A DNA stretch of 64,000 nt from positions 139,347 to 203,346 of the forward strand of contig NZ_QUGI01000007.1 in the NCBI RefSeq assembly GCF_003478995.1, in the 5' to 3' direction. Under the pieces are notes generated by a model. It saw only the letters and a program-made list of their open reading frames with translations, made no database searches and was not told where the DNA came from. The stretch's first letter is position 1. Every line of letters begins with the position of its first letter. The translations under genes were made by a program, and so were the position numbers. Shown one piece after another: positions 7,691 through 18,885 of this stretch. This stretch comes from Pseudoflavonifractor sp. AF19-9AC. Its GTDB lineage: Bacteria > Bacillota > Clostridia > Oscillospirales > Oscillospiraceae.

Positions 7691-7711
7691 TAATGTGCGA
7701 TAAAGAAGTAA
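7691..7711 (+). repeat. Left terminal inverted repeat of element 1
   Basis: This is the first 21 nt inside the GC core. Read inward it matches the right end (18737-18757, reverse strand) at 17 of 21 positions, including the shared block TAAAGAAG. It is probably the recombinase-binding arm of the attachment site. Confidence 0.75.
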
Positions 7712-7775
7712 TAGAAGTGTAAAAAATTTTGCCGTTCCTATCCGGCACTTAGGGCTGTGTCGGATAGGTCAGGCG

Positions 7776-9395
7776 TTAGGCTTCCGGCAAGTCTATCTTG
7801 CCGACAAAGCTGTAATAAATCTCAATGTCCTGCCTGCGGGTGCCGTTCTCGTCATAGCTGCACTCATGCACGACGATTTTCTCAATCATTTCCCGCAAGA
7901 GGGTGGGGGTCAATTCTTCAAAAGCAAGGTGCTTTCTCACAATCCCCATGAATTTCTCGGCGTTGACGGTGGCGGCCTGCGACTTGGAAAGTTCCTCCTG
8001 CAAAGCGGCAGCCCGGTCTTTCAGTTCCCGCTGCTCCTGCTCATAGTCCGCCGACAGCTCCATGAAACGCTCGTCGCTGATTTTGCCGCTTACATTGTCC
8101 TCATACAGCCGCTTGATAATGCGGTTCACTTCGGCAATGCGTGTCTGGGCCTGTTCAAGCTGCTTCGTGGCTGCGGCGGTCTTTCTCTTGCCGCCGATTT
8201 CGTTCTGCTGGATGAGCAGCTTTACAAAGCGGCTCTCATGCCTGGCGGCGTATTCCGTCACTTGCCGGAGATTGGAAAGCACGCCCGCCGTCAAAAGGTC
8301 GGTGCGGATAAAGTGTGCCGTACAGTCACGGGTACGCTTCTTGTAGCTGCCGCAGATATAACAGTCCTGCTTGCGGTTCTTGTTCTGATACCGCTGCTGA
8401 TACAGCACATGGCCGCAGTCGGCGCAGAACAGCATACCAGAGAACAGCCCCACTTCATCATAGCGGTTCGGGCGTTTTCGCTGCTTGCGTAACTCCTGCA
8501 CACGCTCCCATGTTTCCGTGTCGATAATCGGCTCATGGTGATTTGGGAAGATAGCCTGCTTCTCGATGGGGTTCTCAACGCTGTGCTTGACCTTGTAAGA
8601 GGGCTTCTCCGTCTTGAAGTTTACCAGACAGCCAGTGTACTCCCGGTTTTCCAGCAGATGGACGACGGTGTTTGTCGCCCACTTGCACTCATAGCCGGGG
8701 TGGTAGCGTCGGGTGCTGCCCGTCCTGCGGTATTCCAGCGTCCCCGGCGTGGGGATTTGCTGCTCCGTCAGCATACGGGCAATCTTGGTCGGGCCATTTC
8801 CCGCAAGGCAAAGCTGGTAAATCTGCCGGACAACCGGGGCGGCTTCCTCGTCAACGATATAGTTCTCGTCCTTGTCCATGAGATAGCCATAGACTGGCTT
8901 GCTGGTTACAGGCTTGCCGCTCATGCCTTTTGCTTTCTTTACTGCCTTGATTTTCTTGCTCGTATCTCTCACCAGCCATTCGTTAAATAAGTTCCGCAGA
9001 GGGGTAAAATCATTGTCCATGCCGCCGTTTGCGCTGTCCACGTTGTCATTGACAGCGATAAAACGCACGCCCTTTTGAGGGAACAGCATTTCCGTGTAAA
9101 ATCCCACCTGCAAGTAATTACGCCCCAGCCTGCTCATGTCCTTGACTATGACGGTGCCGACTTTCCCGGCTTCAATGTCTGCAAGCATGGCTTGAAATCC
9201 GGGCCGCTGGAAGTTCGCACCTGAGTAGCCGTCGTCGGTGTACCAGCGCAGATTGGTAAAGCCGTTCTGCTTGGCGTAGGCTTCCAAAATCCGTTTCTGG
9301 TTGGAAATGGAATTGCTCTCGCCTTGCAATTCGTCCTCATGGGACAATCTCGGATAAAGGGCGGTAATGAGGTTTTGGGTGGCTTGTCTTAACAT
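7776..9395 (-). CDS. Large serine recombinase of element 1 (TnpX-like)
   Basis: A 539-aa site-specific recombinase. The N-terminal resolvase domain has the catalytic serine in YPRLS (Ser18), then GYSGANFQRPGF and VKDMSRLGRNYLQVG. A recombinase domain (KPVYGYLMDKDENYIVDEEA), a zinc-ribbon (CADCGH...CYICGSY) and a C-terminal coiled coil (about 385-470) follow. It would cut and rejoin attachment sites at a 2-bp core, integrating and excising the element without a tyrosine integrase. The gene lies at the left end, about 85 nt from the junction, as usual for this family. It looks intact. Confidence 0.93.
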   Translation of the reverse strand: MLRQATQNLITALYPRLSHEDELQGESNSISNQKRILEAYAKQNGFTNLRWYTDDGYSGANFQRPGFQAMLADIEAGKVGTVIVKDMSRLGRNYLQVGFYTEMLFPQKGVRFIAVNDNVDSANGGMDNDFTPLRNLFNEWLVRDTSKKIKAVKKAKGMSGKPVTSKPVYGYLMDKDENYIVDEEAAPVVRQIYQLCLAGNGPTKIARMLTEQQIPTPGTLEYRRTGSTRRYHPGYECKWATNTVVHLLENREYTGCLVNFKTEKPSYKVKHSVENPIEKQAIFPNHHEPIIDTETWERVQELRKQRKRPNRYDEVGLFSGMLFCADCGHVLYQQRYQNKNRKQDCYICGSYKKRTRDCTAHFIRTDLLTAGVLSNLRQVTEYAARHESRFVKLLIQQNEIGGKRKTAAATKQLEQAQTRIAEVNRIIKRLYEDNVSGKISDERFMELSADYEQEQRELKDRAAALQEELSKSQAATVNAEKFMGIVRKHLAFEELTPTLLREMIEKIVVHECSYDENGTRRQDIEIYYSFVGKIDLPEA

Positions 9396-9506
9396 AAAAT
9401 CCTCCGTTTCCGACAGCCAGCCCCACTATTCCGTGGTTTCATTGTACCACGGAACAGGGGCGGCTGTACAGCGGTAAAAGTGATAAATCTGCTTCTTTAC
9501 AGCTTG

Positions 9507-9695
9507 TCAAATCGCCTTTTTTTGTGTAGCAGCGGCTTCCGCTTCCAGTACCCTCGCCATCTTGTCGGCGGCGGTGCTGGTGGTGTCTTTCTTGAAAAAG
9601 CCGGACACGACAAGAACGGTATTCCCCATGCGGATTTCCGTCACGCAGTCGGGGCGGCGGGTGGTACGGTGGTCGTGCTGCTTGATATTCTCCAT
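9507..9695 (-). CDS. TnpW-type small transposon-encoded protein
   Basis: A 62-aa protein starting MENIKQHDHRTTRRPDCVTE with a short strand-rich core (IRMGNTVLVVSGFFKKD). ATG 9695 is chosen over ATG 9713 because AAAGGAG lies eight nt before it. Small proteins of this kind accompany serine-recombinase elements in Firmicutes under the name TnpW; their function is not established. The gene lies between the DnaC-like gene and the recombinase and is probably co-transcribed with them. Confidence 0.7.
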   Translation of the reverse strand: MENIKQHDHRTTRRPDCVTEIRMGNTVLVVSGFFKKDTTSTAADKMARVLEAEAAATQKKAI

Positions 9696-9709
9696 AGGCA
9701 ATACTCCTT

Positions 9710-10549
9710 TCATTCAGCCAGCAGTTTCTTCATGGTTTCCATTTTCCGCTTTGCGGTTTCCTGCCGGAAGTTGACGCCAGTAAAGCGTATCGGGACGCAC
9801 ATGGACAGCAGTCGGTCATAAATCCGGGAATGGGCCGTGTCTGTCGGCTTTTTCAACTCGTCCAGCGGGCGGTTGGTGGTGGCGATCAGCGGCTTGTTGC
9901 TGCGGTATCGGGTATCAATCACATGGAATACCTGTTCCAGTCCATAGTCGGTGCCACGCTCCATGCCGAAGTCGTCAATGATAAGCAGCGGATAGCGGCA
10001 AAGGCGGGAAATATACTCATTCCGGCCTGTAAAGCCGGGAGAGAGGTCGCCCAGGATAACGGCGAAGTTCGTCATATATACGGGGACTTCTTTCTCCATG
10101 AGGGCGTTTGCGATACAGCCCGCAAGGTAGCTTTTCCCGTTGCCGACGTTCCCCCAGAACAGGCAGCCGATGTTTTCGGCCTGCATTTCTTCCCAATGCT
10201 CCGCATACCGCCGGGCAATCCCGGTCTGCGGGTTTCTGCCGTTGTCGTTCTCGAATGTCCATTGCTGCATGGCTGAGTCGGCAAAAGCCCTCTGTTTCAG
10301 ATTTTCCACGGCTTCCACATGGCGGCGGTGTTCCTCGGCGGCCTGCCGCTGCTCACGGGCGGCTCTCTGGCAGTCGCACTCTGCCGGGTGGCGGTCACGG
10401 CCAAACAGCTCCTTACCCTCCGGGAAGTAGGCTTCTTTCGGCGTATGGCACTTTCCGCAGTAAAGCAGTCCGTCCTCGCCGATATAGTCCTCCATCTCCG
10501 GGGCGGCGGTTGTCATGTTCTCCAAAATATCTTTGATTTCACTTGTCAT
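9710..10549 (-). CDS. DnaC/IstB-like helicase-loader ATPase
   Basis: A 279-aa AAA+ protein. The N-terminus has cysteines C31, C34, C58 and C60, a likely zinc site. Walker A GNVGNGKS lies near 133-140 and Walker B LLIIDDFGMERG near 195. The family loads the replicative helicase at an origin. The gene overlaps the repA stop by four nt, so it is translationally coupled to the initiator, as expected for a replication module that lets the excised circle replicate. Confidence 0.88.
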   Translation of the reverse strand: MTSEIKDILENMTTAAPEMEDYIGEDGLLYCGKCHTPKEAYFPEGKELFGRDRHPAECDCQRAAREQRQAAEEHRRHVEAVENLKQRAFADSAMQQWTFENDNGRNPQTGIARRYAEHWEEMQAENIGCLFWGNVGNGKSYLAGCIANALMEKEVPVYMTNFAVILGDLSPGFTGRNEYISRLCRYPLLIIDDFGMERGTDYGLEQVFHVIDTRYRSNKPLIATTNRPLDELKKPTDTAHSRIYDRLLSMCVPIRFTGVNFRQETAKRKMETMKKLLAE

Positions 10550-18203: not shown

Positions 18204-18393
18204 ACACCTGTTTGTGAGTGCTGTTTTTGGGGATATGTCAAAATTGATAAGGCAAAAGTATTCTTAAATTGGGTACAAAAAACTAAGCCCCTACAAAAGG
18301 GACTATCATAATCCTTTGTTCCCACTATTTGATTATAGTTTTATTTAAGAATACCTTGCCGCATATTTTTTACTCCTTTTCTGGAATGGAATT

Positions 18394-18422
18394 ATTATAT
18401 CACATCAGTTTTAGGAAAACAA
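18394..18422 (-). promoter_or_regulatory. tet(W) promoter
   Basis: On the minus strand TTGTTT (18422-18417) and TATAAT (18399-18394) are separated by 17 nt. Downstream are two further short start/stop frames (MRQGILK and MIVPFVGA) and an inverted repeat TATTCTTAAA/TTTAAGAATA, as in the tet(M) leader. Confidence 0.8.
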
Positions 18423-18461
18423 GTATCTAAAAGAAATTTTTCTTCCCCTTATATGTAACAA

Positions 18462-18560
18462 TCATACCGGCTTCCTAACGTTCAGAATGGTTTCTACTGT
18501 CTGCTGCGGTGTTTGGTTGGAATTGTCCAGCCAAAAGCCGATCCGTGGTGTTGTCTGCAT
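18462..18560 (-). pseudogene. Remnant of an unrecognised gene (32 codons)
   Basis: A short frame reads MQTTPRIGFWLDNSNQTPQQ and continues TVETILNVRKPV before TGA. It looks like the conserved C-terminus of a larger nucleotide-kinase- or phosphotransferase-like protein, but I cannot name it. There is no ribosome site and no upstream continuation, so it is probably debris between tet(W) and the element's right end. Confidence 0.4.
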
Positions 18561-18736
18561 TTTACTAAATACAAATTCAATGTATACAGAAAGAAATATA
18601 TAAGGAGTGGGAGGGATTCCGCCGTAGTCGGCATTGTAGGAAAATCCAAAAGTTTAGATTTTCTCAAAATGCTTATCTTTTGGTCTTTGGTTCGGAATAG
18701 TGTAGTGCTGGCGGTCTATCTATTGTTTTCGGTTGC

Positions 18737-18757
18737 TTGCTTCTTTACCGTACATGA
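18737..18757 (-). repeat. Right terminal inverted repeat of element 1
   Basis: This is the last 21 nt of the element before the GC core at 18758-18759. Read inward on the minus strand it mirrors the left end with four mismatches (positions 2, 7, 10 and 19). Confidence 0.75.
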
Positions 18758-18885
18758 GCATTGGAGGCAGGGTTGTCCTGGCCGTAACCTTCCAGAAGGT
18801 TGATGCCGCCCCACACGCACAGACCGCCGCCCAGGGCGATGACCAGAGTCTGCAAAACGTCGATAGCGTTAGTAAAAAAGCTCAT
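18758..18885 (-). pseudogene. maff2 5' fragment (N-terminal 42 codons)
   Basis: ATG 18885, preceded by AAAGGAACTGTGAAT, begins MSFFTNAIDVLQTLVIALGG and runs to EGYGQDNPASN, then meets the element 1 junction at GC (18759-18758). The missing C-terminal half is at 7589-7690. The gene follows the virD4 stop by two nt, as in intact relatives. The truncated frame now runs a few codons into the element. Confidence 0.9.

What the first reader, a model, noticed from the sequence alone, without database searches (positions are those of the whole stretch)
7691..18759. Element 1 (11,069 bp, tet(W)) inserted in maff2 with a base-exact junction
Joining 18885-18758 to 7690-7589 rebuilds a 75-codon Maff2 in frame, with the core GC inside an Ala codon. 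So both ends of the element, the insertion site and the 2-bp crossover are read directly. A tet(W)-bearing mobilizable element using a conserved ICE gene as its target shows how resistance can ride on other ICEs.
Basis: seen in the sequence. Interest (0 to 1): 0.75.

Follow-up and report, generated by a model that had tools for sequence, protein, structure and literature searches.

The report
Tetracycline-resistance mobile element inside another element

Summary
The insertion is real: the two maff2 pieces match Pfam Maff2 positions 1-41 and 42-70 of 70. The element between them is a typical IME_Rho_tet: serine recombinase, relaxase, MobC, tet(W) and 21-bp end repeats. That family was published in 2026, with 116 of 256 mapped copies in MAFF2 ORFs (PMC12904643). 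The base-exact claim is wrong. In two uninterrupted relatives of the host ICE (95-96% and 89-91% identical) the flanks overlap by two bases, window 7686-7687 and 18761-18762: AA on the coding strand, in the Lys-42 codon. The GC pair belongs to the element's repeats. AA flanks 37 of 37 5' ends and 77 of 79 3' ends, also outside maff2. The element is therefore 7688-18760 (11,073 bp). Extra: 6,344 bp of backbone is 100% identical in an Anaerotruncus element without a Tet(W) relative, so tet(W) looks like exchangeable cargo. New member of a known kind, low to moderate interest.

The parts
7688..18760 (-). IME_Rho_tet-type integrative mobilizable element, 11,073 bp, main genes on the minus strand
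   Evidence: ends set by uninterrupted relatives L115 and L120 (same genomes again as L139 and L142) and by 21-bp inverted repeats
7688..7708 (.). 3' terminal inverted repeat, 21 bp (recombinase side)
   Evidence: 18 of 21 identical to the other end; its inner 18 bases, up to 3 mismatches allowed, found after the recombinase in 79 of 80 loci
18740..18760 (.). 5' terminal inverted repeat, 21 bp (tet(W) side)
7686..7687 (.). one copy of the 2-bp crossover core (TT on +, AA on the coding strand)
   Evidence: overlap of the two flanks on L115, L120 and L139, L142
18761..18762 (.). other copy of the 2-bp core
   Evidence: AA in 37 of 37 5' ends and 77 of 79 3' ends; plasmid copies of the tet(W) end stop matching at 18762 in 7 of 9 and at 18763 in 2 of 9
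18761..18885 (-). maff2, N-terminal piece
   Evidence: PF12750 positions 1-41 (searched as 18760-18885)
7589..7687 (-). maff2, C-terminal piece
   Evidence: PF12750 positions 42-70
7776..9395 (-). large serine recombinase, 539 aa
   Evidence: Resolvase, Recombinase, Zn_ribbon_recom, DUF4368
9507..9713 (-). TnpW-like small protein
   Evidence: PF14202
9710..10549 (-). DnaC/IstB-like ATPase
   Evidence: PF01695; NF005992
10546..11397 (-). RepA_N replication initiator-like protein
   Evidence: PF06970
11413..11799 (-). Cys-rich VLP protein
   Evidence: PF14194
11789..13465 (-). MobA/VirD2-type relaxase
   Evidence: PF03432; 87.1% identical to the Blautia schinkii DSM 10518 copy
13428..13847 (-). 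MobC/NikA-like relaxosome protein
   Evidence: PF21983, PF19514, PF05713
14796..14999 (-). HTH_16 regulator
   Evidence: PF12645
15579..16136 (-). class I SAM methyltransferase
   Evidence: PF13847, PF08241
16180..18099 (-). tet(W) ribosomal protection gene
   Evidence: NF033148 1283 bits; annotated tet(W) in plasmid matches of 97-99% identity
6655..7521 (-). host ICE VirB6/TrbL-like gene
   Evidence: PF19478; no NCBIfam match
6253..6639 (-). host ICE PrgI-like gene
   Evidence: PF12666; no NCBIfam match
3885..6287 (-). host ICE VirB4-like ATPase, CD1110 family
   Evidence: NF045971 1028 bits
18888..19658 (-). host ICE VirD4-like coupling protein, C-terminal part only
   Evidence: NF045973 positions 234-442

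Best explanation
This is a copy of the IME_Rho_tet family inserted in the maff2 gene of an ICE of the Tn5252/Tn1549 kind. The large serine recombinase (7776-9395) most likely joined a circular attP, made of two 21-bp inverted arms around an AA dinucleotide, to the AA of the Lys-42 codon of maff2. This leaves AA on both sides of the element, from 7688 to 18760. Excision would be the reverse reaction, and transfer would use the element's own relaxase and MobC with an ICE's mating pore. The ends, the core and the gene content are shown by sequence. Excision, recombinase activity and transfer are inferred.
For: Split Maff2 profile. Uninterrupted relatives L115 and L120 with an exact 2-bp overlap of the flanks, seen again on longer stretches of the same two genomes. 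AA at 37 of 37 5' ends and 77 of 79 3' ends, non-maff2 sites included. Plasmid copies of the tet(W) end stop matching at 18762 (7 of 9) or 18763 (2 of 9). Lys AAA/AAG at codon 42 in 46 of 46 intact genes examined. TIRs 18 of 21. Signature genes and identities to named copies. Published family traits. The same 8,461 bp at 99.99-100% in Gemmiger and Agathobaculum, in and outside maff2.
Against: No circular form or transfer is shown here, and the paper's authors call their observations in silico predictions only. Two of 79 3' ends lack AA (L042 TA, L053 AG). One of the 37 5' ends (L044) is probably a false motif match. In 17 of 24 distant plasmid matches the left flank runs on to 7690, i.e. includes GC; I read this as chance, because 39 of the 46 intact genes have an Ala (GCN) codon just before Lys-42, whereas the close relatives L115 and L120 have Ser there. 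The host genome is not held, so an assembly error cannot be excluded from reads.
Confidence: 0.93

Rival explanations
1. One reading: the crossover core is GC, inside an Ala codon of a 75-codon maff2, and the element is 7691-18759.
For: GC lies just outside the shorter repeat on both sides of the window copy; 62 of 79 loci read GCA after the 18-mer on the 3' side; in 17 of 24 distant plasmid matches the left flank runs on to 7690.
Against: Uninterrupted close relatives L115 and L120 have no GC there. The L115 gene has 73 codons. 0 of 46 intact genes examined hold the predicted junction. The listed full-length Maff2 hits, 62 and 26, each span exactly 210 nt (counted); one further place (G201:C7) reads in two overlapping frames over 211 nt, a frameshift and not a 6-nt insert. 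GC also occurs at non-maff2 sites and changes to GT, AC, GA or AT in some copies. GC reads the same on both strands, so it shows at both ends of an inverted repeat.
Confidence: 0.02
2. The unit that moves is the whole host ICE carrying the element as a passenger, not the element itself.
For: The G358 genome has the ICE at 95-96% while its best match to a 2.8-kb chromosomal stretch of the window is 79%, so the ICE itself moves. The cited authors raise the same possibility.
Against: The ICE occurs without the element (L115, L120) and with a different IME at the same site (L140). Nearly identical element DNA occurs at maff2 and non-maff2 sites in other genera.
Confidence: 0.15
3. Assembly artefact: unrelated contigs joined at a repeat.
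For: The host genome is not held and no reads are available.
Against: Both window junctions follow the rule seen at other loci, and the flanks are colinear with an uninterrupted relative over 3,928 and 1,020 bp.
Confidence: 0.02

Closest known systems
IME_Rho_tet / IME_RhoA2-183_maff2-1 (PMC12904643; abstract, sections 8, 12 and 20 and passages read)
   Same: Recombinase, relaxase, mobC and RPP gene content; 10.7 kb reference against 11.1 kb here; 21-bp TIR; 3' boundary 88 bp after the recombinase stop (paper 81-90); insertion in a MAFF2 ORF; tet(W).
   Different: 661 bp from tet(W) to the 5' boundary (paper about 656 for most tet(W) copies). The window copy has about 216 bp less just after tet(W) than 24 of the 30 loci listed, and about 935 bp less than the other 6. 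The crossover dinucleotide is not named in the paper's main text by the terms searched.
Streptococcal IMEs in maff2, traG and snf2 of Tn5252-superfamily ICEs (PMC5357655, PMC5704250; passages read)
   Same: Serine-recombinase IMEs that disrupt conserved ICE genes; two different sites inside maff2.
   Different: Streptococcal hosts; their recombinases and sites were not compared by sequence here.
Tn4451
   Same: IME with a large serine recombinase and a 2-bp core (passages of PMC5704250).
   Different: Low target specificity (same passages); its GA core is recalled, not looked up; not compared by sequence.

Membership tests
IME_Rho_tet | serine recombinase 85-100% similar to the reference | tested here: met
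   97.2% identical to Roseburia hominis An869 (L021) and 93.9% to Blautia schinkii DSM 10518 (L072); the A2-183 reference itself was not compared
IME_Rho_tet | relaxase within 63-100% similarity, with mobC | tested here: met
   87.1% and 82.4% identical to the B. schinkii copy; A2-183 not compared
IME_Rho_tet | tetracycline ribosomal protection gene | tested here: met
   16180-18099, NF033148
IME_Rho_tet | 21-bp TIR, 3' copy less conserved at positions 2, 5 and 11 | tested here: met
   18 of 21 match; the variable positions fit if the TIR starts TGC; the logo figure is not held, so the published letters were not seen
IME_Rho_tet | 3' boundary 81-90 bp past the recombinase stop; 5' boundary 391-3,109 bp from the RPP gene | tested here: met
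   88 bp and 661 bp from coordinates; ranges
IME_Rho_tet | integration in a MAFF2 ORF (common, 116 of 256 in the paper) | tested here: met
   by codon pattern, 52 of 76 loci with a readable 3' flank here
integrative and mobilizable element | excises, and transfers with a helper's conjugation machinery | not testable with these tools
   relaxase, MobC and recombinase present; no wet data
Tn5252/Tn1549-type ICE (host) | VirB4 CD1110, PrgI, VirB6/TrbL, Maff2, VirD4 CD1115 in this order | tested here: met
   (VirB6 and PrgI by Pfam only); same order in pMG2200, which has one extra methyltransferase gene. The Tn1549 label is recalled, and no Tn5252 sequence was compared

The most novel reading that the evidence does not exclude
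The IME backbone (recombinase, replication, mobilization) is a general carrier, often in maff2, with swappable cargo at its 5'-TIR end, and tet(W) is only one load. An element in Anaerotruncus colihominis DSM 17241 (L007) shares 6,344 bp at 100% identity but carries sigma-70 and zf-HC2 genes and no Tet(W) relative. Other maff2 copies with both ends found carry two-component, PadR or MarR/GNAT genes. All of these show the same end rule: inverted arms around AA. Surveys keyed on resistance genes would miss these siblings.
Probability: 0.6. Interest if true: 0.4.

Novelty: new member of a known kind. Interest (0 to 1): 0.25.

Why it matters
The 2026 survey links 71% of tet(W) in gut bacteria to IME_Rho_tet (abstract). 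Fixing the true ends and the AA core gives the right sequence to look for when testing excision and empty sites, and shows why an in-frame rejoining alone can mislead. The tet-free siblings suggest how a resistance gene is loaded onto an existing mobile backbone.

Tried and rejected
GC as core: rejected with uninterrupted close relatives, although distant plasmid matches run on to 7690 in 17 of 24. Phage or plasmid origin: the best matches cover at most 28% of the element, mainly tet(W) with its upstream region, or, in Cutibacterium plasmids, tet(W) plus the recombinase-side end. In-frame rejoining as proof of the core: not discriminating. Host identification: no genome is held for the window; a 2.8-kb chromosomal stretch matches G358 at 79% and 11 other tested genomes with weaker scores, so the host was left unnamed. 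In one search, 46 intact maff2 loci were read without orienting them and gave mixed codons; redid this with both strands tried and dropped none. Those 46 are the places for which DNA was returned, of 84 distinct full-length places (one search listed only its best matches). Of the 80 recombinase loci, 79 gave a 3' end, 37 a 5' end, and 76 a flank long enough to class as maff2 or not (52 maff2, 24 other; L004, L008, L037, L045 dropped). The 5' end found in L044 is probably a false motif match. 454 loci encoded a relative of the recombinase and the tool kept the best 80. The FirmiData paper was not read (one search failed).
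Full report
Observation. The finding says that an 11-kb tet(W) element splits a maff2 gene with a base-exact junction and a GC core. I kept the two maff2 pieces apart throughout. Searched separately, the right piece matches Pfam Maff2 positions 1-41 and the left piece positions 42-70 of 70, so the split is real. The neighbours are conjugation genes: VirB4 (CD1110), PrgI, VirB6/TrbL, and a VirD4 (CD1115) C-terminal part (PrgI and VirB6 by Pfam only). The same gene order, with maff2 uninterrupted and one extra methyltransferase gene, is annotated in pMG2200.

What the element is. The main genes lie on the minus strand: large serine recombinase, TnpW, DnaC-like ATPase, RepA_N, Cys-rich VLP, relaxase, MobC/NikA, HTH_16, SAM methyltransferase and tet(W). 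A 2026 paper names this family IME_Rho_tet: 504 complete and 1,090 partial copies, a 21-bp TIR, a 3' boundary 81-90 bp after the recombinase stop, and 116 of 256 mapped copies in MAFF2 ORFs (PMC12904643; abstract, sections 8, 12 and 20 and passages read). The window copy meets each feature I could test: boundary distances of 88 bp and 661 bp, end repeats matching at 18 of 21 positions (best of 60 shuffles 15), and a recombinase 97.2% identical to the Roseburia hominis An869 copy and 93.9% to the Blautia schinkii DSM 10518 copy.

Where the ends really are. A search of 394 genomes of one order with the left flank found close relatives of the host ICE. In L115 the left flank matches (97.7%) up to window 7687 at locus base 1501, and the right flank matches (97.4%) from window 18761 at locus base 1502, both on descending coordinates. 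L120 gives the same bases at 86.9% and 88.6%. Longer stretches of the same two genomes (L139, L142) again overlap by exactly two bases. The two flanks therefore share one dinucleotide, AA on the coding strand. Because GC reads the same on both strands, it appears at both ends.

Independent checks of the core. Among the 80 recombinase loci, the two bases outside TGC/GCA are AA in 37 of 37 5' ends found and 77 of 79 3' ends, the exceptions being L042 (TA) and L053 (AG); one of the 37 (L044) is probably a false match. The three element bases on the 3' side vary: GCA 62, GTA 10, ACA 3, ATA 2, GAA 2. Of 76 readable 3' flanks, 52 have the maff2 codon pattern and 24 do not, and 22 of those 24 also start with AA. 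Plasmid copies of the tet(W) end stop matching the window at 18762 (7 of 9) or 18763 (2 of 9). The listed full-length Maff2 hits all span exactly 210 nt: 62 and 26, 84 distinct places (counted). One further place (G201:C7) reads in two overlapping frames over 211 nt. The uninterrupted L115 gene has 73 codons.

A result that seems to favour GC. In 17 of 24 distant plasmid matches the left flank runs on to window 7690. Of the 46 intact genes, 39 have Ala (GCN) at codon 41, so GC can match there by chance; L115 and L120 have Ser, and there the match stops at 7687.

Mobility. 8,461 bp of the window element (7688-16148) is 99.99-100% identical in Gemmiger formicilis ATCC 27749 (L002, L004, L008, L010), Gemmiger sp. 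An50 (L006) and Agathobaculum massiliense (L005). By their 3' flanks, L002 and L005 are in maff2, L006 and L010 are not, and L004 and L008 are too short to tell. The host ICE occurs without the element (L115, L120) and with a different IME at the same maff2 site (L140: recombinase 86.1%, relaxase 72.3%, no Tet(W) match). In G358 the ICE is 95-96% identical while a 2.8-kb chromosomal stretch is 79%. Both ICE and IME therefore look independently mobile. Excision and transfer are inferred, not shown.

Cargo. Of 58 loci with at least 9.3 kb upstream of the recombinase, 45 hold a Tet(W) relative and 13 do not within the DNA held. Five loci with both ends found and maff2 flanks (L007, L016, L027, L036, L056) hold no Tet(W) relative. 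L007 (Anaerotruncus colihominis DSM 17241) shares window 7688-14031 (6,344 bp) at 100% and carries sigma-70 and zf-HC2 genes. L016 carries a two-component pair, L027 a PadR regulator, L056 MarR and GNAT genes, and L140 an HTH_3 regulator; the L036 cargo was not searched. The published survey required a resistance protein in complete elements, so such siblings fall outside it. In the parts I read I saw no mention of them.

Verdict. A new copy of a published element family at its favoured target.

Noticed in passing
window about 19700-28950 (ends not resolved), with 27034-30015: A second element with a MobQ relaxase (21950-23446) appears to interrupt virD4 of the same ICE. One 993-residue frame (27034-30015) runs from a VirD4-like start into a serine-recombinase-like protein; this was read by eye and not family-searched. 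Matches of two relatives end at 19780 and 19785.
   Followed up: partly
L007, L016, L027, L036, L056, L140: Related elements in maff2 with no Tet(W) relative; the L007 backbone is 100% identical to the window over 6,344 bp.
   Followed up: yes
maff2 in other genomes: A second break class in Maff2 (profile 1-51 and 45-70) suggests another IME site in the same gene, like the two maff2 locations described in streptococci.
   Followed up: no
window about 16148: Just after tet(W) the window element has about 216 bp less than 24 of the 30 loci listed, and about 935 bp less than the other 6 (L002-type).
   Followed up: partly
L002, L004, L008, L010 (Gemmiger formicilis ATCC 27749): Four contigs of one genome carry the same element; at least two insertion sites differ (L002, L010), so it can be multicopy.
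   Followed up: no
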